Assembly: GCF_000715505.1 (NCBI RefSeq) | Contig: NZ_JHEH01000024.1 | Coordinates: 1-45,725, forward strand | DNA from: Thioclava dalianensis | Lineage (GTDB): Bacteria; Pseudomonadota; Alphaproteobacteria; Rhodobacterales; Rhodobacteraceae | DNA length: 45,725 nucleotides | Direction of reading: 5' to 3' | Part shown: piece by piece, positions 4,801-23,631 of the stretch | How the letters are laid out: the number at the start of each line of letters is the position of its first letter | Numbering within the stretch: position 1 is the first letter of the stretch | Position numbers and translations under genes: made by a program | The notes under the pieces: generated by a model | Database searches by the model: none | Told to the model about the DNA's origin: nothing | Seen by the model: only the letters and a program-made list of their open reading frames with translations

Positions 4801-4876
4801 GTGTTTCCTCCCTATGTGTTGGACTTCTTGTTGATGGCGTTGCCCAGGTCTTCGCCTGGTTGGGTATTCTTTGTGC

Positions 4877-6082: not shown

Positions 6083-6105
6083 CGGAGTTTTCCTCAGACC
6101 ATGAT

Positions 6106-6142
6106 ACAGATGACGCGCAGACCTGTGCCGCGCGTCATCTGT
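6106..6142 (-). other. intercistronic hairpin, 13-bp perfect stem
   Basis: ACAGATGACGCGC pairs perfectly with GCGCGTCATCTGT across an 11-base loop, between the extradiol dioxygenase and reductase genes. There is no T-run, so it is more likely an mRNA-processing or stability element, or a partial terminator, than a full stop. Confidence 0.7.
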
Positions 6143-6181
6143 TGATTACTTGTCAGCGCCGCAGCGCGGCACTGTCCTGAG

Positions 6182-7087: not shown

Positions 7088-7120
7088 ACTATTCCTCCCT
7101 ATGGATGGATGGCGTTGATG

Positions 7121-8709: not shown

Positions 8710-8751
8710 GGCTTGAAGTCCCGATTTATGTGAGTTTTTTTTGCGTGGATT

Positions 8752-8782
8752 GGCATGGTGCGCAGCTAGGGCGCACCATGCC
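8752..8782 (-). other. intercistronic hairpin, 12-bp perfect stem
   Basis: GGCATGGTGCGC pairs perfectly with GCGCACCATGCC around a 7-base loop, just after the stop of the gentisate-dioxygenase-like gene and before nahE. On the minus strand it is followed by an A-rich run, not a T-run, so it is not a classical terminator. Confidence 0.7.
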
Positions 8783-8793
8783 GGACAGTGTCA

Positions 8794-9858
8794 CTATGCG
8801 CCGAGCGGAACCGCGTTTCCACGGTCTTCCCGCCAAAGCCCGAGTTTCTCCTGGCAGACGCGATCGGAGTAAGAGAACAGCACTGCATCGCCGTCCGCCT
8901 CATGCGTGACGGTATGCCAGCTCGGAACGACGAACAGATCCTTCGGACCCCATTCGTAAGTCTTTCCATTGATCACACTGCGACCGGTGCCTTCAGTGAC
9001 GACAAAGACCGTTGCGTCTGTCGACCGATACGGCCGCGACTTGAAGCCTTTCGGAAGCAGTTGAAGGCAGGGCGAAATCGTCGGCATCGCCCAGCCGCCG
9101 TCGACCGGGTTGACATAGCGCATCTTGATACCGTGGAAGGGGTCGACCTCACCCTGCTTCAAAAGATGCTCGAGGCCTTCGCGCGAGCGTTCGTAAGGGT
9201 AATTGAAGATCGGCGACGCTATTCTGGTCGCCTCGTAGTCGACCGGAAGCATGTTGGCACCGTAGCGCCAGCTGCTGTCTTCGGGCTGGCGGGTAATTGG
9301 CTGCTGATCCGCGTGATGCTCTTCTGCGAAAGAGGCGTCGAACACCGACACGATTGGAATATCCAGACCGTCGAGCCAGATCATCGGCGCGTCGCTGTCA
9401 TTGCCGTGGTCGTGCCAGGCTCCCGGCGGAGTGATTACGAAATCGCCAAAGTTCATCACTGTGCGCTCGCCATCGACTGACGTATGCGCGCCGTTGCCCT
9501 CCATCACGAAGCGCAAAGCTGACTGGCTGTGGCGGTGCGCGGGGGCAACTTCGCCCGGCAGGACGATCTGAAGGCCAGCGTAAAGCGACGTCGTAATCCG
9601 GGACTGACCGCGCAGGCCTGGATTTTCAAGCACAAGGACGCGCCGCTCGGCTTCCTTCGCCGTGATCAGACTGCCCGCTTCCAGCAGGTAGGCCTTCGCT
9701 TCGTCGAAATGCCAAAGGTGCGGCAAGCAACCGCTTTTGGGCTCAGGAGTGATGATGTTCGACAAAACAGTCCAAAGTGGGGTATAGGACCCGCTATCGA
9801 TCTTGTCATAGAACATCTTTCGTTCTGCTGTTTCCACAGGCTTTTCGGTCAGCGACAT
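8794..9858 (-). CDS. gentisate 1,2-dioxygenase-type bicupin dioxygenase
   Basis: This Fe(II) cupin dioxygenase opens the ring of gentisate to maleylpyruvate. In 354 residues there are two cupin domains. The N-terminal one holds the metal-site signature PGEVAPAHRHSQSALRF (H108, H110) and the downstream PPGAWHDHGN (H149, H151). The same family includes salicylate and 1-hydroxy-2-naphthoate 1,2-dioxygenases, so direct cleavage of salicylate or hydroxynaphthoate cannot be ruled out. The presence of NagL- and NagK-type genes at 15728-17082 supports the gentisate reading. GGAGGAT lies 7 bases before the ATG. Confidence 0.88.
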   Translation of the reverse strand: MSLTEKPVETAERKMFYDKIDSGSYTPLWTVLSNIITPEPKSGCLPHLWHFDEAKAYLLEAGSLITAKEAERRVLVLENPGLRGQSRITTSLYAGLQIVLPGEVAPAHRHSQSALRFVMEGNGAHTSVDGERTVMNFGDFVITPPGAWHDHGNDSDAPMIWLDGLDIPIVSVFDASFAEEHHADQQPITRQPEDSSWRYGANMLPVDYEATRIASPIFNYPYERSREGLEHLLKQGEVDPFHGIKMRYVNPVDGGWAMPTISPCLQLLPKGFKSRPYRSTDATVFVVTEGTGRSVINGKTYEWGPKDLFVVPSWHTVTHEADGDAVLFSYSDRVCQEKLGLWREDRGNAVPLGA

Positions 9859-9903
9859 ATTTATCCTCCGTTTGGCGCGATCAGATAGAAAGCGTTACAT
9901 ATA

Positions 9904-10227
9904 TCAGAACTGGAACTCTGGGGTGGTGACGGTGAGACCATCGAGATCTGCTGTCAGGCGAATCTGGCAAGCAAGCCGGCTGCTGTCCTGCCTGTTGGCC
10001 GCAAACTCCAACATACTGGCTTCACCTTCGCTGGTCGGCGGAAGCAGAGAAAGCCACTTGGGGTCAACATAGACCTGACAGGTCGCGCATGCGCAAGCGC
10101 CGCCACAATCCGCATCAATTCCCGGCACGCCAGCCATCGTCGCAGCCTCCATCAGAGACTGCCCCTCGCGCGACGATACCTCACGTCGCTCTCCCATCGA
10201 ATCAATGAACACCACTTGGATCGACAT
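9904..10227 (-). CDS. [2Fe-2S] ferredoxin, adrenodoxin/putidaredoxin type
   Basis: This small electron carrier (107 residues from the ATG at 10227) has the C-x5-C-x2-C cluster motif in DADCGGACACATC and a fourth cysteine in SRLACQIRL, as in ferredoxins that serve class I cytochromes P450. The longer open frame upstream has no matching family sequence, and MSIQVVFIDS is the normal start. It lies next to the gentisate-type dioxygenase. Because the ring dioxygenase has its own Rieske ferredoxin, this protein most likely feeds the P450 at 12140-13384. That pairing is inference. Confidence 0.88.
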   Translation of the reverse strand: MSIQVVFIDSMGERREVSSREGQSLMEAATMAGVPGIDADCGGACACATCQVYVDPKWLSLLPPTSEGEASMLEFAANRQDSSRLACQIRLTADLDGLTVTTPEFQF

Positions 10228-10609
10228 AGATATTCTTCCTCCCAGCACGTCGTTCGAATCGAAACTGCTCCACTCAAGGCAGGCTTGCCCACCCATTTGG
10301 GAACAATAACGACGAACTTACTCCTCCGTTTGGCTGCCTTTTTCGTGCCCAATCCCGCCTGACCATGGTCATTCAGGCGGATCAATGGCTTAAACTAAGC
10401 ATGCATACTACATTGTTCGCATATCTTGCTGCTCCTAGTCAAGCGATTGATGGCCAAGGCCCCGACTCAGACATGACCAAACCCGAGCCCGGGTTTTCCG
10501 GTAACGCGCTCCAAGGGTAAAGACGTCCATCTGCTGCCCGAGATTGTCAGTGGTATCGAAGGGTGTTATGCTATAAGCGGGCAACAACGAAAAAGAAGAT
10601 GGTCGGCGC
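10228..10609. promoter_or_regulatory. divergent control region between ferredoxin operon and marR
   Basis: The 382-base gap separates the minus-strand ferredoxin operon from the plus-strand marR. It contains TAAGCATGCAT at 10396-10406, sharing the AAGCATGC core found in the P450 and ring-dioxygenase promoters, and an 8-bp inverted repeat (CCGCCTGA at 10355-10362, TCAGGCGG at 10373-10380) around CCATGG. I could not place convincing -35/-10 boxes. No gene was seen in it. Confidence 0.55.
10397..10406. promoter_or_regulatory. putative operator, AAGCATGC core (copy 1)
   Basis: AAGCATGCAT lies 170 bases before the ferredoxin gene and 204 bases before marR. The same core occurs at 13437-13444 and 20206-20213, both inside promoter spacers. 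It is a candidate binding site for the neighbouring MarR protein, which would give autoregulation. Confidence 0.5.
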
Positions 10610-11134
10610 ATGAAAGATGATACTGAGCGGAGACCGCCCGAAACCTTGGGTGGCGACGCCGATTTTCGGGTCATTATGGACCATCCCGCGCATCTGATTC
10701 GGCGTAGCTACCAAATCTTCTTGTGTGCCTTCGACGAGGCTATGGCTGGCCTGCCGTTGTCGCCTGTGAGCTGGATCATTATCGCAACAGTGCGAAATTT
10801 CCCGAGCCTGTCCGTGACTGAAGTTGCCCGGCGCGCCGCAATAGACAAGGCGAGCTGTGGACGAACTGCAAGCGCGCTTGAGAAGCGCGGGCTGCTTTCG
10901 ATCAAGAAGAGTGATACGGATGGCAGAGAGAAACTGCTCGACATCACCCCTGCTGGCGAGGAATTGTACGGCAAGGCGTTTATTCAGGTCATGAAGCTGA
11001 AGTCGCTGCTCCTGGATGAAATTGATCCAGAGGTGCAGCGTCAGTTCCTGACTTCCATGGCAGCGTTTGTTTATGCAACACGCAAGAACACACGACCGTC
11101 AATTCCGACCGCACGTGACGCCGACATGGATTGA
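10610..11134 (+). CDS. MarR-family transcriptional regulator
   Basis: This 174-residue winged-helix regulator carries the family core: a helix-turn-helix at about residues 65-90 (SVTEVARRAAIDKASCGRTASALEKRGLL, whose last part is the recognition helix) and a wing with the typical DGREKLLDITPAGEELY. MarR proteins bind palindromes as dimers and usually release DNA on binding an aromatic ligand. It is the only regulator within the catabolic island and is divergent from the ferredoxin operon, so it probably controls the island. Its likely site is the AAGCATGC palindrome. The ribosome site is weak (AAGAAG). Confidence 0.9.
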   Translation: MKDDTERRPPETLGGDADFRVIMDHPAHLIRRSYQIFLCAFDEAMAGLPLSPVSWIIIATVRNFPSLSVTEVARRAAIDKASCGRTASALEKRGLLSIKKSDTDGREKLLDITPAGEELYGKAFIQVMKLKSLLLDEIDPEVQRQFLTSMAAFVYATRKNTRPSIPTARDADMD

Positions 11135-11152
11135 GACAGTCATAGCGATTGC

Positions 11153-11186
11153 AGCTGGCCACCCACAAGCAGATGGCCAGCTTTTC
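11153..11186 (+). terminator. rho-independent terminator after marR
   Basis: AGCTGGCCA pairs perfectly with TGGCCAGCT around a 12-base loop and is followed by TTT on the plus strand. It sits 19 bases past the marR stop, between convergent marR and the minus-strand hydrolase gene. Confidence 0.75.
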
Positions 11187-11192
11187 TTGGCG

Positions 11193-12050
11193 TCAGGTGA
11201 CGTCGATTTCCATCGAGCCGATCCGGTCGATCCAGGCATGGATCTTGTTGCCCGGCTCAATCTGCCCGACGCCCTCGGGAGTCCCGGTGAAGATGACGTC
11301 GCCCACTTCCAGTGTATAGAATCGGCTGGCCATCTCGATCAGTTCCGGCACGCTCAGCACAAGATCACGCGTATTGGCCTTCTGCCTGGTGACGCCGTCC
11401 ACCTTCAGTTCGAAGTCGAGCTGGGACGGATCGGTGATTTCATCGGCTGTTACAAGCCACGGTCCCAGCACCGAATAGCTGTCTATGGACTTGCGCATGC
11501 TGCGTTCCTCGGCGCCGCGCACCGTCATGTCAAGCCCGATCGCATATCCTGCGACGTACTCCAGCGCGCGCTCCGCTGACACCCTGTCGGCGCGTTTGCC
11601 GATGATGACCGCAAGTTCGATTTCGTGATCGCTGCGCCGATCAGGGAAGCGCAGTGTCACCGGCTCGGAGGGGCCGATAAGACTGCTGGTAGCCTTCAGA
11701 AACAGGCCGGTCTCGTGGATCACCCGCACTTGGGCTGCATTGCCCTGGTGCAGATCCTTCTGCGCGCGCGCCTCTTCCAGGTGCTTGACGTAGTTCACAG
11801 GCGCCGCGACAAGCTTGCCGGGGTTTGCAACCGGTGAATCGAAGGCCAGTTCACGGACTGGTCTGCGCTCTCCGGTCCTGGCAGCCACAAGGAATGCCTC
11901 CTTGAGCTGATCGAGATGTGCGATCAACGGGTCATGCCGCGGCAACGGGTAGCGCAGTTGCGGCAAAAGGTCGAGGGCCGAGGTGACATCGACAACCTCA
12001 TCGTCCTGAACAAGACCGATACGGTCCTTGTGGAAGCGACAAATCTTCAT
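11193..12050 (-). CDS. fumarylacetoacetate-hydrolase-family protein (second FAH hydrolase)
   Basis: This 285-residue FAH-fold enzyme has a small N-terminal domain and a C-terminal catalytic domain. The metal-binding acidic residues are in DHEIELAVIIG (about 138-148), and the family loops GLDMTVRGAEER and VGDVIFTGTPEGVG are intact. FAH enzymes cleave C-C bonds of diketo acids (fumaryl- or maleylpyruvate) or hydrate and decarboxylate related acids. A separate NagK-type hydrolase is at 16372-17082, so this copy may act on maleylpyruvate directly or on an alkylated analogue. AAGGAGAA precedes the ATG. The family is secure and the substrate is not. Confidence 0.85.
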   Translation of the reverse strand: MKICRFHKDRIGLVQDDEVVDVTSALDLLPQLRYPLPRHDPLIAHLDQLKEAFLVAARTGERRPVRELAFDSPVANPGKLVAAPVNYVKHLEEARAQKDLHQGNAAQVRVIHETGLFLKATSSLIGPSEPVTLRFPDRRSDHEIELAVIIGKRADRVSAERALEYVAGYAIGLDMTVRGAEERSMRKSIDSYSVLGPWLVTADEITDPSQLDFELKVDGVTRQKANTRDLVLSVPELIEMASRFYTLEVGDVIFTGTPEGVGQIEPGNKIHAWIDRIGSMEIDVT

Positions 12051-12072
12051 TTCTTCTCCTTATCAACGGACA

Positions 12073-12111
12073 CCCGGCCCGGCGATCCTGGGGTCGGGTC
12101 GCCGGGCCGGG
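12073..12111 (-). other. intercistronic hairpin, 13-bp GC-rich stem
   Basis: CCCGGCCCGGCGA pairs perfectly with TCGCCGGGCCGGG around a 13-base loop, between the P450 stop and the FAH start. It is very stable and lacks a T-run. It may attenuate read-through or stabilise the P450 message. Confidence 0.7.
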
Positions 12112-12139
12112 GTGACTAGTTCTCAGCGGTCGTCGCGGA

Positions 12140-13384
12140 TCAAGCCAAACGCACGGGGAGTTCTTCCAGACCTCTGAACCGTGTGTTGTGCTGAAAGCGA
12201 GCTTCGCCGTTGCGCACCAAGGTCGGCAGTTCCTTCAGCACGGACGCAAGGGCGATCGGGGCCTCCATCCTGGCAAGCGGCCGACCGAGGCAGACATGGA
12301 TCCCCGCACCGAACGCGACATGATTGTTCGGGCGGCGCGCAAAATTCAGCCTGTCGGGGTCTTCGAACACACGCTCGTCCCTGTTCGCCGAAGCCTGGGC
12401 AAGAACCACCTCGGTGCCCGCCGGGATCGTGCCATTACCACTGGCAAGTTCCACATCGTTCGTCGTTCGCCGCCCCTGAAGCTGGAGCGGCGTGATGAAG
12501 CGGATCAACTCTTCGAGTGCCGTGGGCAGAGCAACCTCACCCTCGACCAGCTGACGCTTGCTCTCGGGGTCATCCATCAGGAAATGCATCGACTGAGAGA
12601 TGAGGTTTGTCGTGGTCTCATGGCCGCCATTGAGCGTCACGATGCACATGTGAAGAATTTCGGCGTCACTGACCTCAACGCCATTTCGCTGCGCCGCAGC
12701 CATTGCGCAGAGGATGCTCTCGCTCGGGTCGATCGTGCGGCGCGCCTTGATCTCGTCGAGAAATGGCAGGAGATAGCCCATGAATTCCGTTACTGCTTCA
12801 TGGCCCTGCTTGATCGCTTCGACCGACACCTGCGGGTTGAGCGGGAAAAGCACCTTGCGCCCCACGCCCTGGATATAGTCAGCATCTTCAACCGGAATGC
12901 CGATGACCCTGCAAATGAGTGCAACCGGGATGCGGAAAGCGAAATCGCGCACGAAGTCGAACTCGCCCATTTGCTTGACCTTCTTGATCTCACGGTCAAT
13001 CACGTCTTGGGTAAAGTCCGTCAGAGACTTGATGGATGTCTGAGAGAAAAAGGGGTTGACGATATCGCGCAACCGGTCGTGATCGGGGTTGTCACGGAAG
13101 AGCATCGTCGATGTGTGATGCTCCAGCAGGGGGCCCTTGCCAAATTTCTTCTCAAAGTACTCGCCCTTGTAAACGAGACCTGACAGGTCGCGCCAAACCT
13201 GACGCACATCGTCATAGCGCGTCAGAAGAACTGTGCCATCTGCTTGCCGGTGAACAGGATCACCATCGCGCAACAGGCGAAAATACTTGCTCGGATCGTC
13301 GAAATAGTCATCCGGCGGAGCCAATAGATTGAAAGCTTGCGCTTTCTCAGAGTCTGTTTGATCAATTCTCGCGGTTCCGGTCAT
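12140..13384 (-). CDS. cytochrome P450 (class I, bacterial)
   Basis: This soluble 414-residue P450 shows all hallmark motifs: the I-helix oxygen-binding GGHETT (253-258), the K-helix ExxR (E292-R295) and the heme-ligand loop FGAGIHVCLGR with C365. Bacterial P450s of this kind need a [2Fe-2S] ferredoxin and an FAD reductase, and both occur in the island. It has its own promoter (13422-13450) with the putative island operator in the spacer, so it is a regulated part of the pathway. The island lacks a salicylate 5-hydroxylase of the Rieske type, so aromatic hydroxylation of salicylate is a candidate role. Hydroxylation of a side chain or of the parent hydrocarbon is equally possible from sequence. 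Confidence 0.93.
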   Translation of the reverse strand: MTGTARIDQTDSEKAQAFNLLAPPDDYFDDPSKYFRLLRDGDPVHRQADGTVLLTRYDDVRQVWRDLSGLVYKGEYFEKKFGKGPLLEHHTSTMLFRDNPDHDRLRDIVNPFFSQTSIKSLTDFTQDVIDREIKKVKQMGEFDFVRDFAFRIPVALICRVIGIPVEDADYIQGVGRKVLFPLNPQVSVEAIKQGHEAVTEFMGYLLPFLDEIKARRTIDPSESILCAMAAAQRNGVEVSDAEILHMCIVTLNGGHETTTNLISQSMHFLMDDPESKRQLVEGEVALPTALEELIRFITPLQLQGRRTTNDVELASGNGTIPAGTEVVLAQASANRDERVFEDPDRLNFARRPNNHVAFGAGIHVCLGRPLARMEAPIALASVLKELPTLVRNGEARFQHNTRFRGLEELPVRLA

Positions 13385-13421
13385 TTTTCCCCCCTGTATT
13401 CCACATCAATGAACAGCTTGT

Positions 13422-13450
13422 AACATAGGCATTCGTAAGCATGCTGTCAA
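13422..13450 (-). promoter_or_regulatory. P450 promoter with embedded operator
   Basis: On the minus strand TTGACA (13445-13450) and TATGTT (13422-13427) are separated by exactly 17 bases. The spacer contains AAGCATGCT on the plus strand (13437-13445), directly abutting the -35 box. A protein bound there would block polymerase. The start codon is 38 bases downstream of the -10 box. Confidence 0.75.
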
Positions 13451-13556
13451 TTTTCAACTTGGACTCGCCCTTGCTTTTGTCCATGTCCGAAGATGAAGCT
13501 TCAGCCTTTCGCGCTATCCCCACGTGCGCGGCACGCTCCTCTGCGGCGATCTGCCT

Positions 13557-14420
13557 TTAGCCGCAAGTCGCGCCCGGAAGGGCCTGGACGAATGCGGCGA
13601 TCGGGGCAAGGGCTGCAAGGTCCACGCCGGTTTCAACGCCGCAATCCCGGAACAGGCTCACGACATCCTCGGTGGCGACGTTGCCGCTGGCACCGGGAGC
13701 ATAAGGGCAGCCGCCAAGCCCACCAATCGCGGAATCGAAGACGCGTACACCCTGATCATAAGCCGCGCGCACATTCGCCGTGCCATGGCCGTAGGTATCA
13801 TGCGCATGCATCGCCCAAGCGGAAACGGAGGGAAAGCGCGCCATCGCCGCCCTGAACAATTCCGCGACCTGCGCCGGTTCGCCGCGGCCAGTCGTGTCGC
13901 ATAGGCAGATCTCGGCATCGGGGCAGATTTCCAGCGCGCGTTCCAGAAGATCGAGCACGGCGTTGGCAGGTGTCACCCCCTCGAACGGGCAATGGAATGC
14001 GGTGGCGAGGTTGAACCGCAGCCGCAGCCCATCGGGCGCCTCGGCGACAAGCCGGGCGTAATCGGCGAGGGCCTCATCCGGCGTGGCGCGCACGTTCGAA
14101 CGGCTGTGGCTTTCCGAGACCGAGATGACATAGGACAGAAACTCCGCTCCCGCCGTGATTGCCTTCAGGCCATAGCGGGCATTGGGAACCAGGACCTGCG
14201 GCACGACATGACCCTGGGCCAGAACATCGGCCAGAACCTCGCCGGCGTCGGTGAGTTGAGGAATGGCGCGCGGACTGACGAAGGAGGTGATCTCCATCCG
14301 TTTCAATCCTGCAGCGGCAAGGTCGCGGATCACGGCGATCTTGGTCTCGGTCGGGATGAAGGGGCCGATGTTCTGGAACCCGTCGCGCGGGCCGACTTCG
14401 ACGATCTGGACGGCAGTCAT
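13557..14420 (-). CDS. HMG-CoA-lyase-like enzyme
   Basis: This TIM-barrel CoA-ester lyase of 287 residues has the family signatures EVGPRDGFQN near the N-terminus, the metal site HAHDTYGHG, and GGLGGCPYAPGASGNVATED with the catalytic cysteine. It overlaps the upstream CoA-transferase gene by 4 bases (ATGA), so the two work together: the transferase would make a CoA ester that this enzyme splits. In a gentisate-type pathway the substrate could be a citramalyl- or malyl-like CoA ester from direct hydrolysis of (alkyl)maleylpyruvate. Leucine-type HMG-CoA cleavage is less likely because no other leucine genes are near. The substrate is inference. Confidence 0.85.
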   Translation of the reverse strand: MTAVQIVEVGPRDGFQNIGPFIPTETKIAVIRDLAAAGLKRMEITSFVSPRAIPQLTDAGEVLADVLAQGHVVPQVLVPNARYGLKAITAGAEFLSYVISVSESHSRSNVRATPDEALADYARLVAEAPDGLRLRFNLATAFHCPFEGVTPANAVLDLLERALEICPDAEICLCDTTGRGEPAQVAELFRAAMARFPSVSAWAMHAHDTYGHGTANVRAAYDQGVRVFDSAIGGLGGCPYAPGASGNVATEDVVSLFRDCGVETGVDLAALAPIAAFVQALPGATCG

Positions 14421-15661
14421 GCTATTACTCCCTTCTGGTAGAGCAACTTGATTTCATCCTGCGAGTAGCCCGCGATCTCTGCCAGAACGGCTGCGGTATC
14501 TTGTCCGACCTCCGGGCCGGTGCAGCGGATCGTGCCGGGGGAATCGGGGAAATGCGGCACAATGCCGGGATGAAGCAGGTCGCCATGTAGCGGGTCGCTG
14601 ACTTCGCGCACCATGCCACGCGCGCGGAACTGCGGATCATCGGCAATTTCTGCGGCAGTGTAGATCAGCGTCGAAGGGATGTCTGCCTTGGCCAGAAGCT
14701 CTGTCAGTCGTCCGGCATCGAACCGCCGGGACCAGGCGGAAATGGCCTCGTCGAGTTCGTCGACGTGCTTGAGGCGGCCCGCATTGGTCTGCAACTCCGG
14801 TCGTACCGCCAGATCCTCGCGCCCGATCAACGCTGTCAGCCGCTGAAACAGAAGATCTGAATTCGCAGCGACAATGACCCAACGGCCGTCTGCCGAGGGA
14901 TAGGCGCTGGTGGGAGCCGCCGACGCGATGCGCGCGCCGACGGGTTGGCGCACAAGGCCGAGCGCACCGTACTCCGTGACGATCCCTTCCGTGAGCGACA
15001 GCACGGCTTCTGTAAGCGCTACATCGACGGTGTTGATGTCCCCATCCTCGGCTCCGCCGCTGCCCGTCCGGCCGTCTCGGCGCAAAAGACCGGCGAGAAC
15101 GCCGATCGCGGCGTAAAGTCCGGCAACGGAATCGCCGATGCTGATGCCGACGCGTGGCGGCGGCAGATTGGTGGTGCCGGGAGCATGGTCGGTCAGGTGA
15201 CGCAATCCGCCGATCGCCTCGCCAATGACGCCAAAAGCGGCGCGGTCACGCAATGGGCCAGTCTGTCCGTAACCCGAGACATGGGCCACTACGAGACCTG
15301 GTCGCAGTTCCTGCAGCCTTTTACGATCGAAGCCGAGACGCGCCAGGCCCCCGGGGCGCTGATTCTCGATCAGCGCATCAGAGCGCGCGATGATCCGTCC
15401 CACGGCCTCGACTCCTTCGGGGCTTTTGAGATCAACCGCGACCGAACGCTTGTTGCGGCCATGAACGCTCCACCACAGTGACGCGCCGTTGGATTGCGCG
15501 CCCCAGCCCCGCACAGGATCCCCATCGGGCGGTTCGATCTTGATGATCTCGGCGCCAAGATCGCCGAGAATGCGAGTGGCGAACGGAGCGGCGATGAAGT
15601 GGCCGATTTCGACAATGCGGAGGCCGCTAAGGGGTGGCGGGGCTTCTGGTCTGGTGTTCAT
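14417..15661 (-). CDS. family III CoA-transferase (CaiB/BaiF)
   Basis: This enzyme moves CoA between acids without free CoA. The 414 residues contain the N-terminal GLRIVEIGHFIAAPFATRILGDLGA nucleotide-binding half, ENQRPGGLARLGF, and GISIGDSVAGLYAA, where the aspartate of GDS is the expected catalytic residue. It is translationally coupled to the HMG-CoA-lyase-like gene downstream. Family members of this arrangement often use succinyl-CoA as donor for a dicarboxylic acid. GAGGACAC precedes the ATG. The acceptor acid is not identified. Confidence 0.88.
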   Translation of the reverse strand: MNTRPEAPPPLSGLRIVEIGHFIAAPFATRILGDLGAEIIKIEPPDGDPVRGWGAQSNGASLWWSVHGRNKRSVAVDLKSPEGVEAVGRIIARSDALIENQRPGGLARLGFDRKRLQELRPGLVVAHVSGYGQTGPLRDRAAFGVIGEAIGGLRHLTDHAPGTTNLPPPRVGISIGDSVAGLYAAIGVLAGLLRRDGRTGSGGAEDGDINTVDVALTEAVLSLTEGIVTEYGALGLVRQPVGARIASAAPTSAYPSADGRWVIVAANSDLLFQRLTALIGREDLAVRPELQTNAGRLKHVDELDEAISAWSRRFDAGRLTELLAKADIPSTLIYTAAEIADDPQFRARGMVREVSDPLHGDLLHPGIVPHFPDSPGTIRCTGPEVGQDTAAVLAEIAGYSQDEIKLLYQKGVIA

Positions 15662-15727
15662 GTGTCCTCGTCGAGATATCCGGCGTCTCGCTCGCTTCAG
15701 GAGAGTCCGGCTTCTGTTGGTGTTGCG

Positions 15728-16375
15728 TCATACCGCATCTGGTTGGTGTGCTGGCGCGGCCTCACGGAAAGCGGGCAGCGCATCGGCTGCATCGAATATC
15801 CGCGCGATGGTGGGCCAACGGCTTGTATCAATGTCGAAACGTCGGTTGTTCCAGACCTGGGCATAGAGGCAGCAATCCGCGAGCCCCGGCGTATCACCAT
15901 GACAGAAACGCCCGGTGCGACTGTCCTGCGCCAGCATGATTTCAAGCGGATCAAAGGTGGTTTCGACCCATTCCGTGAACCAGGCTTTCTGAGCAGCCTC
16001 GTCGGCACCGAATTGCTCGGTCAGGCGAGTCAGGACGCGCAGGTTGTTCAGGGGGTGGATCTCGCAGGCGATCATGTATGAAAGCGCGCGCACACGTGCC
16101 CGCCCGTCTGCCCCCTCAGGCAAGAGCCGCGGTCCGGGTTGGGTTTCGTCGAGCCATTCGATGATGGCAAGCGACTGCACAAGAACCTGGCCATCGTCGC
16201 TTTCCAGAACCGGCACAAGTCCGGCGGGGTTCAGCGCCAGGAATTCGGGCGTACGGGTTTCACCTTTGCGCAGGGCATAGGGCACATATTCATAGGCGAT
16301 GCCCTTGAGGTTGAGGGCAGCGCGCAGCCGCGTCGAGGTCGATGAGCGGAAGAAATTATGAAGGCGGAAGGTCAT
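15728..16375 (-). CDS. nagL: maleylpyruvate isomerase, zeta-class GST fold (NagL type)
   Basis: This glutathione-dependent isomerase converts maleylpyruvate to fumarylpyruvate. From the ATG at 16375 it has 215 residues and begins FRLHNFFRSSTSTRLRAALN, containing the zeta-class catalytic serine motif. It continues with ALNPAGLVPVLE and SLAIIEWLDETQP, the glutathione-binding elements. This start overlaps the nagK stop (ATGA) and has AAGGGA 9 bases upstream; the longer frame upstream lies inside nagK and is not used. It follows nagK in the same operon. Maleylacetoacetate isomerase is the close alternative, but the neighbouring gentisate dioxygenase favours maleylpyruvate. Confidence 0.9.
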   Translation of the reverse strand: MTFRLHNFFRSSTSTRLRAALNLKGIAYEYVPYALRKGETRTPEFLALNPAGLVPVLESDDGQVLVQSLAIIEWLDETQPGPRLLPEGADGRARVRALSYMIACEIHPLNNLRVLTRLTEQFGADEAAQKAWFTEWVETTFDPLEIMLAQDSRTGRFCHGDTPGLADCCLYAQVWNNRRFDIDTSRWPTIARIFDAADALPAFREAAPAHQPDAV

Positions 16376-17082
16376 TCGACGTGTCCCTTCGCGCGCGGCC
16401 CGATGGTCGTGGTAATCTCTCCAAGCCCACTGATTGAGACGACGCATACATCGCCCACCTGCATCGCGCCGACGCCCGCAGGCGTGCCTGTCATCACCAG
16501 ATCGCCGGGCCGGATCTCCATTGACTGCGACAGGATCGAGATGATCTCTGGCACCGACCAGATCAGGTCTTGCAGATCGGCGCTTTGCTTGACGGCACCA
16601 TTTAGCGTCAACTGGATCCGGCCCTGCTCGGGCTTGCCGACCGGCGCGCCAGTGTGGATCGGACCGATCACCGCCGAGCGATCAAACGCCTTGCCCCAGT
16701 CCCAGGGCCGTCCTGCCGCACGGGCAGCAAGCTGCAAGTCCCGTCGCGTCAGGTCGTTGCCGATGGCGTAGCCGAAGATGTGGTCGCGCGCCTGTTCCTC
16801 GGGAATATCCGTGCCAGCCTTGCCGATGGCGATCACCAGTTCGGCTTCATAGTGGAAGTTCTGCGTTTCGGGCGGATAGGCGACGACCTGCCCATCTTCG
16901 ACAACGGCATCGGCGGGTTTGGTGAAGAAAAACGGCGGATCGCGATCCGGGTCCTTGCCCATCTCTCGTGCATGCTCGGCATAGTTGCGTCCGACGCAGA
17001 AGATCCGACGCACAGGGAAACGCTCGTCCCGACCGGCGATAGGCAGGCTGACGGCAGGCGGCAGCGGGAAACTGTAATTCAT
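16372..17082 (-). CDS. nagK: fumarylpyruvate hydrolase (NagK type)
   Basis: This FAH-family hydrolase splits fumarylpyruvate into fumarate and pyruvate, the last step of the gentisate route. From the ATG at 17082 it has 236 residues. It contains CVGRNYAEHAREMG, PPFFFTKPADAV, the metal-site HYEAELVIAIG and the C-terminal GDLVMTGTPAGVGAM, all typical of this small FAH group. The start was chosen because GAAAGGA lies 11 bases upstream and the protein begins MNYSFPLPP; the extra 21 codons upstream have no family match. It overlaps nagL by 4 bases. Confidence 0.9.
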   Translation of the reverse strand: MNYSFPLPPAVSLPIAGRDERFPVRRIFCVGRNYAEHAREMGKDPDRDPPFFFTKPADAVVEDGQVVAYPPETQNFHYEAELVIAIGKAGTDIPEEQARDHIFGYAIGNDLTRRDLQLAARAAGRPWDWGKAFDRSAVIGPIHTGAPVGKPEQGRIQLTLNGAVKQSADLQDLIWSVPEIISILSQSMEIRPGDLVMTGTPAGVGAMQVGDVCVVSISGLGEITTTIGPRAKGHVE

Positions 17083-17141
17083 GGAGGTTATTGTCCTTTC
17101 CTCGTGGTCGTAATTCAGTAATGTGGCATCGTAGGATGCAG

Positions 17142-19082
17142 TCATGTCGGCACTATCGCCCTGCGCAGAAACCGAAGTGCCACCATGATTGCGACACCCA
17201 GGCCATGGAGCATGAGGGTGTATCCGCCACCCAATGCTTCCGGCATAAGAAGCAGCACTCCGCCAAAGCCCAGAGCTGCGCGTTCGTAGCCTGACAACAT
17301 GCCCCCGAACCAGCCAACCATGGCGGCGGATATGGCATAAACCCCAATTGCCGCAGCAGACGTGGCCAGAAAGATTTCAACCGGGGTTCCCTGCATCAGC
17401 AGGGCGGGCGAGACCACGAAGATGAAGGGAATGATGTAGGCTGTCCAGCCTAGCCGCATCGCAACGAATGCTGTCTGCATCGGCGGGGCCCCGGCCAGCG
17501 CGGCGGCAAAGAAGGCGCCGATGCCGACAGGCGGGGTCACCATTGACATCATGCCGAGGTAGAAGATGAAGAAATGGGCGGCCATCGGTGTGATCCCGGC
17601 CTCTACCAGAGGCGGGGTAAGAAGGACCGCCAGCAAAAGATAGACGGCAACCGTCGGCATCCCCATGCCAAGAACAACACTGGCAATGGCCGTGAGGAGC
17701 AAGAGCAGCGGAAGGCTGCCCCGACCGATCTCGGCCAGCGCGAACGTGCCGGCAAAGCCCAACCCGGTGATGTTGAGAACACCGATGATGAAGCCGGCGG
17801 CAGCGGCGATCATCAGGATCTCGGTCATGGAGATGCCGGCTTCGGCGAGCGATTGCCAGATCATGCGCAGAGTGATGCGCCGGCCACCATAGCCGTATGC
17901 GACGCCGCAGATCAGGGCAACGCCGGCCGCCCAGAGGGCCGCCGTTTCCGGTCGCTGGCCCAGCCAGAACATGCCGACCACGATCACTGCAAACGGCAGG
18001 ATGAAGATACCCCCGCGACGCAGAGTGTCGAGCGCAGAAGGAATTTCATCCTCACGCAGGGGGGCGATGTTGGCCTTGGCGGCCTCAAGATCAACCTGAC
18101 AGTACACCGCAAAGTAATAGAGCGCGGCCGGGATGATCGCTGCAATCGCGACCTGCGCATAGGAAACGCCCAGGAAATCGGCCATAAGGAAAGCGACTGC
18201 GCCCATGACCGGGGGGGCGATCTGCCCTCCGGTCGAGGCGACGGCCTCGACTGCGGCAGCCATCCGGGGCCGATATCCCGAGCGGATCATCAGCCGGATG
18301 GTGACGACGCCGGTCGCGACGATGTTGGACACCACAACCCCGGAGATCGTGCCGAAAAGCGTCGAGGCCAGGATCGAGATCTTGGCCGCTCCGCCGCGGC
18401 GGCGCCCCAGCGCGGCAAGCGCGATGTCGTTGAAGAACTCGCCCCCCCCCGCCCGCACGAGGATCTGCCCGAACAGCACGAACGCGGCGACGACCGTTAC
18501 CGACACGTTCATGGTAAGGCCGAGCATGCCATTGGCATCGAACCCGATATAGGAAAGCAGACGATCCGGTGAGACCTGCCGCGTTTGCATCGCACCCTGA
18601 ATCATGTGGCCGATCATCCCGTAGCCCCCGATGAAAAGCACCACCACGACGAGCGCCCAGCCCACCACCCGCCGCAGCCCCTCAAGCACCAGCAGGACAA
18701 GCATCCCGGACATGATCACGATATCGACCGGGGCGGACATCACCCGCGAGACGATATCGGCATAGTTTATGGCAACATATAGCGAAAGACCAAGCCCCAG
18801 GACGGCAAGAATCCAGTCGATGGTTCTACCACCGTCCGCCGGAACATTCTCGTCGCTGCCGCGTGGATCCTTCTCGCCGACGCTGCTTCTGTCGATCAGG
18901 AACACCAGGCCCAGCCCAAGCCCCAGGGCGACGGCCAATATCTGCTCGACATAGACGCTCAGCCCGAGGCGGCTCGGCGCGTCGAACCCCACAGCGACGG
19001 CCAGCAGCGAAAGTGCCACCGCCTGGGTTTGGACGGCAATCCGACGAAATGTTGGCAGCCGACTGCCAGTTGTCTGAGTCAA
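17142..19082 (-). CDS. TRAP transporter fused permease (4TM/12TM)
   Basis: This large integral membrane protein of about 646 residues has some 18 or more hydrophobic helices, combining the DctQ-like small and DctM-like large subunits as in TAXI-type TRAP systems. Conserved blocks include SGVVVSNIVATGVVTIRLMI, GGQIAPPVMGAVAFLMADFL and GMMSMVTPPVGIGAFFAA. It works with the solute-binding protein encoded just upstream (19164-20135) and is driven by a sodium or proton gradient. The ATG-free 5' end uses TTG; TTG at 19082 has GGAGGAA 8 bases before it and is preferred to TTG at 19100. It probably imports an aromatic or organic acid intermediate; the ligand is unknown. Confidence 0.9.
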   Translation of the reverse strand: MTQTTGSRLPTFRRIAVQTQAVALSLLAVAVGFDAPSRLGLSVYVEQILAVALGLGLGLVFLIDRSSVGEKDPRGSDENVPADGGRTIDWILAVLGLGLSLYVAINYADIVSRVMSAPVDIVIMSGMLVLLVLEGLRRVVGWALVVVVLFIGGYGMIGHMIQGAMQTRQVSPDRLLSYIGFDANGMLGLTMNVSVTVVAAFVLFGQILVRAGGGEFFNDIALAALGRRRGGAAKISILASTLFGTISGVVVSNIVATGVVTIRLMIRSGYRPRMAAAVEAVASTGGQIAPPVMGAVAFLMADFLGVSYAQVAIAAIIPAALYYFAVYCQVDLEAAKANIAPLREDEIPSALDTLRRGGIFILPFAVIVVGMFWLGQRPETAALWAAGVALICGVAYGYGGRRITLRMIWQSLAEAGISMTEILMIAAAAGFIIGVLNITGLGFAGTFALAEIGRGSLPLLLLLTAIASVVLGMGMPTVAVYLLLAVLLTPPLVEAGITPMAAHFFIFYLGMMSMVTPPVGIGAFFAAALAGAPPMQTAFVAMRLGWTAYIIPFIFVVSPALLMQGTPVEIFLATSAAAIGVYAISAAMVGWFGGMLSGYERAALGFGGVLLLMPEALGGGYTLMLHGLGVAIMVALRFLRRAIVPT

Positions 19083-19123
19083 AGCCTGTTTCCTCCACAA
19101 TGAGCGAATGCAAAAAGGACTGC

Positions 19124-19141
19124 GCCGGGAAATCTCCCGGC
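19124..19141 (-). other. intercistronic hairpin
   Basis: GCCGGGA pairs with TCCCGGC around AATC, between the TAXI binding-protein stop and the permease start. In binding-protein-dependent operons such stems often raise the level of the first gene relative to the permease. That role here is inference. Confidence 0.55.
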
Positions 19142-19163
19142 CCAGCCCTCCGTCATAACCGTG

Positions 19164-20135
19164 TCAGTCAACAGCGCGAATGGCGACGCCCCGCTCGGCG
19201 AAGAAGGCCGCTGCACCAGGGTGATATTCCACACCCGGATAATCGACATAGGCGGTTTCAATGTTCATCACGCGAAGCGGAGGATAGGCATCGCCGATCG
19301 CACCCACATTGTCGAAAATCGAGGCCAGCAGCGCCTTGACCTGTTCGTCGGACACATGCTCACCAGCAACAAGGACGTTGTCCCATGTCAGCATCATCAT
19401 CGGCGCATCGACACCCACCCGCACCGGCGAGGGCGTCACCTCTGAGAAGTAATAGGCCGGGCGAAACTTGCGAATCGTTTCGAGCGCCTGCTCATCCGAG
19501 GCGACCTGAAGATAGCGGACCCCGCCCACCATTGCGCCGACCTCAGCGACCTTCGGCCCGCCGACAGCGAAGAAGGCCGCATCCGTCAGACCCGAGGCCA
19601 GAGCATCGACATTGCGAATGATATCGGGGATCGGCACTTCAACCACTTCACCATAGCTGATCCCGTCCGCCTCGAGAAGCGCACTCACCAGCGGACGGTT
19701 CAGCGGGAAAGCCTCCCAGCCCGAGGGCACACGCTTTCCGGCAAGATCGGAGACCCGCGTCATGCCGGAATCTGCCCGGACGAACAGCCCTACCGCAAAG
19801 GGATTGATCTTGGCCACAACACGCAGATTCGGCAGAGCCGCCGAGTAGTCACCCTCCCCGGCGACCGCTACGATCATGTCATTGATGTCGGTCATCGTGA
19901 ATTCGGCGTCTTTGCTGTCGACGGCCTGAAGCATCTGCGCGTTGCCGCTATATGCCTGAACAACCAGCCGCCCGCCGCCGCTTTTCTGGGCCTCGGCCGC
20001 AATGACCGAAGCCATCGTATTCCACACCGAACCCGCAGGAGGTGTCGTGATCGATGTAACCTGTGCGGAGGCACCGCCAGCCGCCGTCACTGCAAATACC
20101 ATCGCGCCAAAAACGCGCGTCAAAAACATCCTCAT
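19164..20135 (-). CDS. TAXI-family TRAP solute-binding protein
   Basis: This periplasmic receptor for the fused TRAP permease has 323 residues from the ATG at 20135. A signal peptide (MRMFLTRVFGAMVFAVTAAG, cut after ASAQ) is followed by the TAXI domain with a glycine-rich start (TPPAGSVWNTMASVIAAEA) and YSGNAQMLQAVDSKDAEFTM. An upstream in-frame ATG at 20171 would add 12 residues before the signal and is not favoured. It starts the long minus-strand gene row and is divergent from the ring-dioxygenase operon. The ligand is unknown; many TAXI proteins bind dicarboxylates or amino acids. Confidence 0.88.
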   Translation of the reverse strand: MRMFLTRVFGAMVFAVTAAGGASAQVTSITTPPAGSVWNTMASVIAAEAQKSGGGRLVVQAYSGNAQMLQAVDSKDAEFTMTDINDMIVAVAGEGDYSAALPNLRVVAKINPFAVGLFVRADSGMTRVSDLAGKRVPSGWEAFPLNRPLVSALLEADGISYGEVVEVPIPDIIRNVDALASGLTDAAFFAVGGPKVAEVGAMVGGVRYLQVASDEQALETIRKFRPAYYFSEVTPSPVRVGVDAPMMMLTWDNVLVAGEHVSDEQVKALLASIFDNVGAIGDAYPPLRVMNIETAYVDYPGVEYHPGAAAFFAERGVAIRAVD

Positions 20136-20196
20136 CTTCTCGCCCCCTATGCTGAACTCGCTCCTCCGCAAGCGCTTCTTCTTACCAGTTACGGCC

Positions 20197-20225
20197 TTGC
20201 TTGGAAAGCATGCTTTCCATATTGC
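20197..20225 (+). promoter_or_regulatory. ring-dioxygenase promoter with 18-bp perfect palindrome
   Basis: TTGCTT (20197-20202) and TATTGC (20220-20225) are separated by 17 bases. The spacer is almost entirely the perfect palindrome TGGAAAGCATGCTTTCCA (20202-20219), whose centre is the AAGCATGC core seen in two other control regions. A dimer bound here would cover the promoter. It lies 90 bases before the alpha-subunit gene and in the shared gap with the divergent TAXI gene, so it could control both. Confidence 0.78.
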
Positions 20226-20314: not shown

Positions 20315-21679
20315 ATGAACGTAAAGGCAAATGTTGGCGCGACGGGCGCTTATTCTGATGCCGAAATTCTTGCAATGATTGACGAGAAGAACGGCAAGTT
20401 CGACCCTAAGATCTATGTTGACGAGTCGCTTTATCGCCTTGAGCTTGAGCGCATTTTTGCGCGCACCTGGGTTTGCATGGGTCACGAGTCGCATATCCCG
20501 AATTCGGGCGACTTCACGACCGCCTATATCGGCGAGGATCCTGTGGTCGTTGTGCGCCAGAAAGACGCCAGCATCCGCGTGTTCCTGAATCAGTGCCAGC
20601 ACCGCGGAATGCGCATCTGCCGCGCCGATTCGGGCAACGCCAAGGCATTTACTTGCACCTACCATGGTTGGGCATACAATCAGGGCGGTGATCTGGTCAG
20701 CGCCCCGATGGAGAAGGAAGCCTTCGGTGGTTGCCTGAACAAGGCAGAGTGGGGGCCGAAGCAGGCGCGCGTCGAAACCTACAAGGGTCTCATTTTTGCG
20801 AACTGGGATGCCGACGCGCCGGGACTCGACGAATATCTGGGTGATGTCAAATTCTACATGGACATCATGCTCGACCGCTGTGAGGCCGGAACCGAGGCGA
20901 TACCCGGGATCCAGAAATGGGTCATTCCCTGCAACTGGAAGTTCGCGGCCGAGCAGTTTGCTTCGGACGCTTATCATGCGGGCACCACCTCGCACTTGTC
21001 CGGCATCATGGCCGGTGTGCCGGAAGATGTGGATATTACCCAGGTTGCCCCTCCGACGGATGGTTTGAATGTCCACATGGAGAACGGCCATGGTTGCGGC
21101 CTCTTCTTGCGCAACCCGATGTTCTACATGACTATTGTTGGGCCGAAGGTGACGGAATACCTGACGACCGGGCCAGCATACGAGGAGGCAGTGCGGCGTT
21201 TGGGTCAGGGACGAGCGGACGTGAACCTTTGCCATACCAACGTCTTCCCGAACCTGTCGTTCCTGGCAGGGATCAACACGGTCCGGATGTGGCAGCCTCG
21301 CGGCCCGAACGAGATCGAGGTCTGGACCTTCACTCTCGTTGACAAAACTGCCCCGCAGGAGATCAAGGACGAATGGCGTCGCCACACATCGCGCACATTC
21401 TCGGCGGGCGGCGTGTTCGAGCAGGATGATGGCGAAAACTGGTGCGACATCCAGCAAGTGCTGCAGGGTCATGTTGCACAAAACCAGAAGTTCAACATCG
21501 AAATGGGCTCGCATACAGTGACGGCCGATAATCCCGAGGGCTTCCCCGGGCTGAGCTTCGCATACACCTATAGTGAGGAGTCGGCGCGAGGCCTGTACCG
21601 TTATTGGACGCAGATCATGACCGCACCGGATTGGGATGCAATCCGCCGGATCGATCAACGGCCGCTCGCGGCAGAGTAA
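20315..21679 (+). CDS. ring-hydroxylating dioxygenase, alpha subunit
   Basis: This is the catalytic subunit of a Rieske non-heme iron dioxygenase that adds O2 to an aromatic ring to form a cis-dihydrodiol. In 454 residues the Rieske cluster ligands are C94, H96, C114 and H117 (CQHRG and CTYHGW). The mononuclear iron site is H221, H227 and D378 (SDAYHAGTTSH and NWCDIQQVL). The AEQFxSDxYHAGTTSH pattern is that of biphenyl/toluene-type enzymes rather than classical NahAc. It leads an operon with the beta subunit, Rieske ferredoxin, diol dehydrogenase and aldehyde dehydrogenase. GGGAGGAG precedes the ATG. The context suggests a naphthalene-like substrate. Confidence 0.95.
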   Translation: MNVKANVGATGAYSDAEILAMIDEKNGKFDPKIYVDESLYRLELERIFARTWVCMGHESHIPNSGDFTTAYIGEDPVVVVRQKDASIRVFLNQCQHRGMRICRADSGNAKAFTCTYHGWAYNQGGDLVSAPMEKEAFGGCLNKAEWGPKQARVETYKGLIFANWDADAPGLDEYLGDVKFYMDIMLDRCEAGTEAIPGIQKWVIPCNWKFAAEQFASDAYHAGTTSHLSGIMAGVPEDVDITQVAPPTDGLNVHMENGHGCGLFLRNPMFYMTIVGPKVTEYLTTGPAYEEAVRRLGQGRADVNLCHTNVFPNLSFLAGINTVRMWQPRGPNEIEVWTFTLVDKTAPQEIKDEWRRHTSRTFSAGGVFEQDDGENWCDIQQVLQGHVAQNQKFNIEMGSHTVTADNPEGFPGLSFAYTYSEESARGLYRYWTQIMTAPDWDAIRRIDQRPLAAE

Positions 21680-21717
21680 CGTTCAATCGGCGGCAAATGT
21701 CCGCTTATGTATCAAAC

Positions 21718-21741
21718 GTCTGCCGATACGCCTCGGCAGAC
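21718..21741 (+). other. hairpin between alpha and beta subunit genes
   Basis: GTCTGCCGA pairs perfectly with TCGGCAGAC around TACGCC, 25 bases before the beta-subunit start. There is no T-run. It may be an mRNA-processing or stability element setting subunit ratios. Confidence 0.7.
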
Positions 21742-21765
21742 ACTTTACGATGAGGGAGGAATAAG

Positions 21766-22639
<874 letters not shown>

Positions 22640-22670
22640 AAAACAGCGTCAAAAACAGGGAGGAATTACA

Positions 22671-23504: not shown

Positions 23505-23512
23505 CCATAGCC

Positions 23513-23537
23513 GTGCGCACGGATAGGCCGTGCGCAC
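23513..23537 (+). other. hairpin between diol dehydrogenase and aldehyde dehydrogenase genes
   Basis: GTGCGCACGG pairs perfectly with CCGTGCGCAC around ATAGG, 9 bases after the nahB-like stop. It also makes two tandem copies of CCGTGCGCAC. No T-run follows. Confidence 0.7.
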
Positions 23538-23631
23538 AGTTGAAACTGGGTCGTTCTCTGGACGAATCCTCGCGAGGCTTTTGGCTGACGCAGGTTTCAA
23601 GAACAGAGAAGTAAACTTAAGAGGACATGGA

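What the first reader, a model, noticed from the sequence alone, without database searches (positions are those of the whole stretch)
10397..20225. Shared AAGCATGC operator in three control regions of the catabolic island
The core AAGCATGC occurs at 10397-10404, 13437-13444 and 20206-20213, each in an intergenic control region. At 20202-20219 it is the centre of an 18-bp perfect palindrome that fills the 17-base spacer between TTGCTT and TATTGC. At 13437-13445 it abuts TTGACA in a TTGACA-N17-TATGTT promoter. Placement inside promoters on both strands suggests one repressor, and the only regulator in the island is the MarR protein at 10610-11134. This would be a small, testable regulon.
Basis: partly seen in the sequence, partly recalled or inferred. 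Interest (0 to 1): 0.7.

Follow-up and report, generated by a model that had tools for sequence, protein, structure and literature searches.

The report
Shared operator of hydrocarbon-degradation gene cluster
A short, near-symmetrical DNA word sits in three control regions of a transferable gene cluster for degrading polycyclic aromatic hydrocarbons and is conserved in the related clusters compared, so it is most likely the docking site of the cluster's own MarR-type repressor, an ordinary kind of control that I did not find described for this cluster.

Summary
The three AAGCATGC sites, the 18-bp palindrome (20202-20219) and the TTGACA-N17-TATGTT promoter are real. Extended to WAAGCATGCW, only the three intergenic sites remain in the window, of 16 places in the 4.18-Mb genome.

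Comparison decides it. In five further clusters (Actibacterium x2, Celeribacter persicus, Salipiger abyssi, Neorhizobium petrolearium) all three sites are intact, although flanks agree only about 57% with Neorhizobium. Invariant blocks: TAAGCATGCATACTA, TAAGCATGCTGTCAATTTTCAACTTG, AAAGCATGCTTT. The catabolic genes presumably form four units behind these sites. A more distant cluster type (Sagittula MA-2, G449) has related words at its own control regions.

The likely binder is the MarR at 10610-11134. A Polymorphum plasmid keeps a truncated marR with one site about 90 bp before it. The co-travelling Lrp/AsnC gene (28091-28612) is absent from that plasmid and from Sagittula's. Binding, ligand and sign of control are untested. 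The cluster is published (PMC11705938); my searches of an open-licence library found no described regulator. New member of a known kind: a MarR-controlled aromatic regulon.

The parts
10396..10410 (.). Operator O1: TAAGCATGCATACTA; read towards the ferredoxin gene TAGTATGCATGCTTA, downstream of the candidate -35 and of the presumed -10 region
   Evidence: 15-base run invariant in six clusters; one of 3 WAAGCATGCW places in the window
10436..10451 (-). Invariant block TAGTCAAGCGATTGAT that holds the candidate -35 TTGACT (10437-10442, minus strand) of the ferredoxin-gtdA promoter P1; its -10 is not clear in this window
13436..13461 (-). Operator O2 and promoter block TAAGCATGCTGTCAATTTTCAACTTG, overlapping the -35 (TTGACA 13445-13450) and abutting it in the spacer of P2 (cytochrome P450)
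   Evidence: 26-base run invariant in six clusters; promoter hexamers
13422..13427 (-). Candidate -10 TATGTT of P2
   Evidence: sequence match only, not invariant across the six clusters
20202..20219 (.). Operator O3: perfect 18-bp palindrome TGGAAAGCATGCTTTCCA between TTGCTT and TATTGC in the divergent TAXI/dioxygenase region P3; AAAGCATGCTTT is the invariant core
   Evidence: the TTGCTT hexamer is not conserved in Neorhizobium
10610..11134 (+). MarR-family regulator (174 aa), the proposed binder
   Evidence: Pfam MarR_2 1.5e-9 and MarR 1e-7; present in all six type B clusters
10544..10572 (+). Candidate marR promoter TTGTCA-N17-TATGCT, without an AAGCATGC site
   Evidence: sequence match only
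3461..10296 (-). Presumed unit behind O1: ferredoxin, gentisate 1,2-dioxygenase, hydratase-aldolase, 2-hydroxychromene-2-carboxylate isomerase, extradiol (VOC) dioxygenase, ferredoxin reductase, OmpW, GST
   Evidence: co-transcription inferred
11193..13384 (-). Presumed unit behind O2: cytochrome P450 and a fumarylacetoacetate-hydrolase-family enzyme
   Evidence: co-transcription inferred
13557..20132 (-). Presumed unit left of O3: TAXI-TRAP transporter, FAH-family hydrolase, GST-type isomerase, CoA transferase, HMGL-like lyase
   Evidence: co-transcription inferred
20315..25083 (+). Presumed unit right of O3: ring-hydroxylating dioxygenase alpha and beta, Rieske ferredoxin, dihydrodiol dehydrogenase, aldehyde dehydrogenase
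   Evidence: the Rieske ferredoxin by analogy with the Actibacterium annotation; co-transcription inferred
28091..28612 (+). Lrp/AsnC-type regulator travelling with the cluster; rival binder, judged unlikely
   Evidence: Pfam AsnC_trans_reg 9.9e-18; not found on the Polymorphum and Sagittula plasmids

Best explanation
The three sites are operators of one small regulon that covers the catabolic cluster. Shown from sequence: a near-palindromic word (WAAGCATGC with a variable right arm) sits downstream of the candidate -35 of the ferredoxin-gtdA promoter, over the -35/spacer of the P450 promoter, and in the shared region of the divergent transporter and dioxygenase units; it is conserved as a block in each of the six type B clusters examined. 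Inferred: a dimer of the cluster's MarR protein binds the word and keeps RNA polymerase off the promoters until an aromatic substrate or pathway intermediate binds MarR and releases it.
For: All three sites intact in 6 of 6 clusters, with flank identity to Neorhizobium of only 0.56-0.58 over 152-200 positions; the three regions have 6 invariant runs of 9 or more bases and one in each region is the operator. In Celeribacter persicus the sequence left of O2 differs strongly, but the block from TAAGCATGC on is intact. On the Actibacterium plasmid all WAAGCATGCW hits (4 hits, 3 places, 157 kb) are these sites; on the Neorhizobium plasmid 3 of 4 places in 380 kb. Polymorphum plasmid: the single WAAGCATGCW hit in 70 kb lies about 90 bp before a truncated marR. 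Between window and Neorhizobium the presumed DNA-binding part of MarR is better kept (54 of 65 residues) than the C-terminal part (36 of 64). The more distant type A cluster (Sagittula p6, G449) has related words at 3 control regions, one of them TAGTAAGCATGCGTAG, against TAGTATGCATGCTTAG here. In Sagittula MA-2 three genes of the homologous cluster are induced 27.8- to 33.0-fold by phenanthrene (PMC11705938, section read), so a cluster of this kind is inducible.
Against: No binding or expression data for MarR. marR has no AAGCATGC at its own promoter in Neorhizobium, and the window site is 205 bp from marR and belongs to the ferredoxin promoter. The type A MarR is only 34-37% identical and lies about 8 kb (G449) or about 32 kb (Sagittula, round the plasmid) from that cluster. 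A 41% MarR relative in G450 has no cluster and no AAGCATGC in the 40 kb examined. In the three whole host genomes WAAGCATGCW also occurs elsewhere: 3 of 10, 3 of 14 and 3 of 13 places are the island sites (G1038, G1039, G1040). Five of the six type B clusters are closely similar DNA, so independent comparisons are few. O1 and O2 are imperfect palindromes. Lrp was sought only on the plasmids of Polymorphum and Sagittula.
Confidence: 0.72

Rival explanations
1. The shared operator is real but is bound by another regulator: the co-travelling Lrp/AsnC protein or a host-encoded factor. The MarR protein then does something else.
For: Lrp/AsnC is on the same replicon or contig in 6 of 6 type B clusters, the window's included. 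A different MarR-family gene in the host genome (G000:C16) has AAAGCATGCA overlapping its first possible start codon. Chromosomes of the Polymorphum and Sagittula strains were not searched for Lrp.
Against: Lrp was not found (E <= 1e-20) on the Polymorphum and Sagittula plasmids, which carry a marR relative and the word. Lrp plus the transketolase-like gene occur in G450 without the cluster, and without the word in the 40 kb examined. The C16 MarR has no match (E <= 1e-15) in 15 other genomes of the genus and no detectable BLASTP similarity to the cluster's MarR; it was not sought in the other cluster-bearing genomes.
Confidence: 0.17
2. The word is part of conserved promoters or of recently transferred DNA and is no regulator site; agreement between the three regions is chance plus shared ancestry.
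For: The bare 8-mer also occurs three times inside genes. Some common 8-mer arises in 290 of 20000 shuffles. Five clusters are closely similar DNA.
Against: The word holds different places in the three promoters, so it is no promoter element as such. In Neorhizobium it is kept in all three while flanks fall to about 57%. It is symmetrical, rare on the plasmids, and the only WAAGCATGCW on the Polymorphum plasmid lies before marR.
Confidence: 0.06
3. MarR binds these sites as an activator or dual regulator, not as a plain repressor.
For: O1 and O2 lie next to further invariant DNA (TAGTCAAGCGATTGAT; TTTTCAACTTG upstream of the P2 -35) that may serve another protein.
Against: The words overlap or lie beside the presumed polymerase-binding region, the usual place for a repressor (review PMC5487221, passages seen).
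Confidence: 0.1

Closest known systems
MarR-family repressors of aromatic catabolism: HcaR, CouR, FerC, PcaV (PMC5487221, passages seen)
   Same: Winged-helix MarR protein encoded with catabolic genes; palindromic sites in promoters; repression lifted by a pathway compound is the usual scheme. PcaV (4fht) is among the closest solved sequences, 4e-9.
   Different: Here three operators for presumably four units spread over about 10 kb, with O1 nearer the catabolic promoter than marR; a PAH/gentisate pathway; ligand unknown. NCBIfam equivalogs (Saro_0803, HpaR and others) match far below their cut-offs.
PAH cluster of Sagittula sp. MA-2 (type A) and relatives of types B and C (PMC11705938; abstract, sections 6 and 11 and search passages read)
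   Same: The window carries the same set of catabolic genes. The paper lists C. persicus DSM 100434, S. abyssi SY10-16, C. naphthalenivorans DSM 105040 and N. petrolearium (another strain than the plasmid record used here) as type B, and the window has the gene order of those loci.
   Different: The words MarR and regulator do not occur in the paper's main text; I saw no operator described in the parts read.
NahR/LysR-type control of naphthalene genes (recalled, not searched)
   Same: Induction of a naphthalene-type pathway by an aromatic compound.
   Different: NahR is a LysR-type activator responding to salicylate (recalled); here the regulator genes recognised beside the catabolic genes are of MarR and Lrp/AsnC type.

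Membership tests
MarR transcription factor family | MarR winged helix-turn-helix domain | tested here: met
   Pfam MarR_2 1.5e-9, 38.3 bits against cut-off 27; MarR 1e-7, 32.2 against 24.6
MarR transcription factor family | Dimer that binds a palindromic DNA site in promoters | tested here: inconclusive
   One perfect and two imperfect palindromic words, conserved in the promoters; dimerisation and binding not testable here
MarR transcription factor family | Release from DNA by a small ligand | not testable with these tools
   No ligand data
Autoregulated, divergent MarR locus | Operator at the marR promoter itself | tested here: inconclusive
   Divergent ferredoxin/marR region in the window, but the site is nearer the ferredoxin promoter and no AAGCATGC lies before marR in Neorhizobium; in Polymorphum the site is about 90 bp before the marR fragment
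Single regulon (shared operator) | Same word in each promoter, conserved against diverged flanks | tested here: met
   3 of 3 sites in 6 of 6 clusters; flank identity 0.56-0.58 to Neorhizobium
NCBIfam regulators HpaR, Saro_0803, SlyA and others | Score above the curated equivalog cut-off | tested here: not met
   Best 41.0 bits against a cut-off of 200
Lrp/AsnC operator (rival) | Lrp gene on every replicon that carries the word with a marR | tested here: not met
   No Lrp at E <= 1e-20 on the Polymorphum and Sagittula plasmids

The most novel reading that the evidence does not exclude
A self-contained, portable regulon: one subfamily of MarR (conserved HPxHLIRRSYQ and DKxSxGR) and its operator have moved together with PAH-degradation clusters between Rhodobacterales and Rhizobiaceae. 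The two cluster types A and B, rearranged and about 48-77% identical in their proteins, still use relatives of one ancestral operator (TAGTAWGCATGC / ATGYWTACTA) at their main control regions, so that regulator and operator can be seen drifting together.
Probability: 0.4. Interest if true: 0.45.

Novelty: new member of a known kind. Interest (0 to 1): 0.36.

Why it matters
If right, it names the switch of a PAH-degradation cluster found across marine bacteria, one relative of which has been shown to be inducible (PMC11705938, Sagittula) but for which I found no described regulator. It gives exact operators for binding tests, reporter strains and a PAH biosensor, and a case for following how a regulator and its sites stay matched during horizontal transfer.

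Tried and rejected
Considered and rejected: (1) chance, which within-window statistics alone would not exclude (290 of 20000 shuffles) but conservation does. (2) A wider regulon in the host genome: outside the window WAAGCATGCW has 13 places in G000; in a crude open-frame check 9 of 13 lie within open frames of 270 aa or more (one of them, L016, near the start of its frame) and 4 (L007, L014, L015, L017) lie in short frames or at frame edges. All-against-all BLAST of the loci I held (17 and 30 of the 50 rows) showed no non-island site shared between genomes, only one within-genome pair, L003/L008. Of the 20 rows not in that comparison, 4 were looked at in L065-L067: they lie inside open frames, and one of them has the same surrounding sequence in G1039:C24 and G1040:C8, so those two genomes do share other DNA with the word, as the matching spacing of their three hits also suggests. 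The other rows are island sites or were not examined. The reversed control pattern had 0-2 hits except in G1039 (50). (3) Lrp/AsnC as binder. (4) The second MarR gene of the genome at C16.

Led nowhere: search for the word in print (38 papers hold AAGCATGCTT, 20 listed; none of the listed titles or abstract openings concerns a MarR operator; none with MarR, GCATGC, inverted repeat and aromatic). Searches with MarR plus naphthalene or gentisate, with Actibacterium, and with Martelella gave listings; no listed title or abstract opening was about this cluster's regulator; of these papers I opened only PMC5487221 (passages). The library holds open-licence papers only. Wider genome searches, own genome included: MarR at E <= 1e-18 in 3 of 390 genomes of the order and 1 of 385 of the class; dioxygenase at E <= 1e-60 in 3 of 101 relatives, the other two at 39-42% identity, and at E <= 1e-120 in 1 of 394 of the family. 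PADLOC gave only two weak hits. The PWM scan was trained on 9 distinct versions of the sites it recovers, so its top three in the window are no independent evidence; no fourth site of similar score appeared (18.1 against 9.6). The type A pattern ATGYWTACTA was chosen after seeing the Sagittula sites. In one search my Rieske ferredoxin coordinates were out of frame; that row is not used. Structure prediction was not run. Type C (C. indicus P73), Martelella, Rhodovulum and Thioclava clusters were not reached.
Full report
What is there. The window (45.7 kb; contig C24 of a 4.18-Mb, 98-contig genome) carries a cluster for polycyclic aromatic hydrocarbon degradation: ring-hydroxylating dioxygenase, dihydrodiol dehydrogenase, extradiol (VOC) dioxygenase, 2-hydroxychromene-2-carboxylate isomerase, hydratase-aldolase, aldehyde dehydrogenase, gentisate 1,2-dioxygenase (TIGR02272, 563 bits against a cut-off of 442), FAH-family hydrolases, GST-type isomerase, P450, TAXI-TRAP transporter and OmpW (some names taken from the annotated Actibacterium copy). 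The same gene set is described for Sagittula sp. MA-2 (type A) and, in another gene order, as type B in several genera whose loci have the order seen here (PMC11705938; abstract, sections 6 and 11, and search passages read).

The observation. The three intergenic AAGCATGC sites, the 18-bp palindrome and the two spacer distances are as stated. The intragenic copies are flanked by C or G, the intergenic ones by A or T on both sides, so WAAGCATGCW keeps only the three. In the genome WAAGCATGCW has 17 hits at 16 places and AAGCATGC has 69 hits. Some 8-mer shared by the three regions arises in 290 of 20000 shuffles.

Comparison. Relatives of the MarR were found on plasmids of Actibacterium sp. EMB200-NS6 (95%), Neorhizobium petrolearium (71%), Polymorphum gilvum (63%, truncated) and Sagittula MA-2 (35%) and in Celeribacter persicus, Salipiger abyssi and Actibacterium naphthalenivorans (98, 98, 95%). 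In all six type B clusters (window included; the right end of three of them was cut by the fetched stretch) each of the three control regions has the word. Aligned, the invariant runs of 9 or more bases are: P1 TAGTCAAGCGATTGAT (candidate -35), TAAGCATGCATACTA and GCATATCTT; P2 TAAGCATGCTGTCAATTTTCAACTTG; P3 AAAGCATGCTTT and AGGGAGGAG (a likely ribosome-binding site). Flank identity to Neorhizobium is 0.56, 0.57 and 0.58 (n = 200, 152, 173). Between these two clusters the catabolic and transport proteins are about 84-97% identical and MarR 71%. Five of the six clusters are closely similar DNA, so Neorhizobium, the strongly different left flank of P2 in C. persicus, and the relic and type A below carry the weight. 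The -35 hexamer of P3 (TTGCTT) and the -10 of P2 are not kept in all six, so those promoter assignments are weaker than the operators.

Rarity. On the Actibacterium plasmid (157 kb) the only WAAGCATGCW places are the three operators; on the Neorhizobium plasmid (380 kb) 3 of 4 places; in the whole genomes behind C. persicus, S. abyssi and A. naphthalenivorans 3 of 10, 3 of 14 and 3 of 13 places. So the word is no signature of the cluster genome-wide, but it is concentrated there.

Which promoter each site serves. In Neorhizobium the ferredoxin-gtdA operon lies about 5 kb from marR with Lrp, transketolase-like and transposase genes between; site O1 is with the ferredoxin operon. So O1 belongs to that promoter. 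O2 overlaps and abuts the -35 of the P450 promoter; O3 fills the spacer of the dioxygenase-side promoter and lies between the divergent units. If each unit is co-transcribed, as gene spacing suggests but nothing here proves, the catabolic genes from 3461 to 25083 stand behind one of the three operators.

Which protein. MarR is in every type B cluster examined. In the 40 kb of the Polymorphum plasmid that I compared with 24 window proteins, only a marR fragment and a FAH-enzyme fragment (90% identical over 135 residues) matched, and the single WAAGCATGCW hit of that 70-kb plasmid lies about 90 bp before the marR fragment; the bare AAGCATGC has two more places there, both within the FAH fragment. 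That plasmid and the Sagittula plasmid have no Lrp relative at E <= 1e-20; their chromosomes were not searched. In G450 the Lrp (83%) and the transketolase-like gene (86%) are present, with no gentisate dioxygenase at E <= 1e-80 in the genome and no AAGCATGC, TAGTAWNCAT or its complement in the two 20-kb stretches read; G450 also has a 41% MarR relative there. This last point counts mildly against a universal link of this MarR subfamily with the word. Between window and Neorhizobium, residues 46-110 of MarR agree at 54 of 65, residues 111-174 at 36 of 64 (the domain limits are my estimate).

The distant cluster. Type A (Sagittula p6 L031; G449 contig C12, nearly the same DNA in the stretches compared, so one independent case) has proteins about 48-77% identical to the window. 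ATGYWTACTA occurs 3 times in the 162-kb plasmid and 3 times in the whole G449 genome, in each case all at control regions of the cluster: before the hydratase-aldolase, between gtdA and the dioxygenase, and before the ferredoxin. The pattern was derived from those sites, so only its absence elsewhere counts; the reversed control has 3 hits in G449 and none on the plasmid. In G000 the pattern has 3 hits, one of them O1; in G1038 2, one of them O1; on the Neorhizobium plasmid 1, O1. Read on one strand the type A sites are TAGTAAGCATGCGTAG, TAGTATACATGT and TAGTATGCATAG, against TAGTATGCATGCTTAG for O1 of the window. Two of them lie shortly downstream of a TTGACA. I take this as homologous operators with drift; it is the weakest part of the case, because the type A MarR is only about 35% identical and lies outside the cluster, about 8 kb away in G449 and about 32 kb in Sagittula.

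How it most likely works. MarR dimers sit on O1-O3, block polymerase at P1, P2 and P3 and keep the pathway off; a substrate or intermediate releases them. Shown: words, their conservation, their position. Inferred: binder, sign of control, operon limits. Unknown: ligand. In the MarR regulators of the review (PMC5487221, passages) inducers are often early intermediates, in several cases CoA thioesters. Expression of the Sagittula genes for the ring-hydroxylating dioxygenase, the ring-cleaving dioxygenase and gentisate dioxygenase rises 27.8- to 33.0-fold with phenanthrene.

Verdict. Very probably a real, small, cluster-wide regulon, ordinary in kind, not found described in my searches.

Noticed in passing
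10416-10427: Just beyond O1, four of the six type B clusters have ATGCATATCTT (a second TATGCATA-like word that may also hold the -10 of P1), while this window and Salipiger abyssi have TTCGCATATCTT; the P1 promoter may differ between strains.
   Followed up: no
L023:19905-20330 and 23110-23514: The Polymorphum gilvum plasmid holds what looks like a relic of the cluster: a truncated marR followed by transposase genes, a FAH-enzyme fragment, and one intact AAGCATGCTT site.
   Followed up: partly
25591-28612: A transketolase/PDH-E1-like gene with a divergent Lrp/AsnC regulator travels with the cluster but also exists in G450 without it (84-86% identity); its role in PAH degradation is unclear.
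   Followed up: partly
G000:C16:51345-51354 (L007:1501-1510): AAAGCATGCA overlaps the first possible start codon of another MarR-family gene that has no match in 15 other genomes of the genus; probably chance.
   Followed up: partly
10227-10296: The ferredoxin start is uncertain: the open frame begins at 10296, but the annotated Actibacterium copy uses a shorter form that corresponds to a start at 10227, behind a GGAGGAAG ribosome-binding-like site.
   Followed up: no
1-30 and 29948-29979: The same sequence (actatt[ct]tgccccctccggcatcagacccc) appears at the window start and beside an IstB gene (29043-29939); VirB4/TrbE-like and MerR genes are also nearby, so the cluster seems to sit in mobile DNA.
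   Followed up: no
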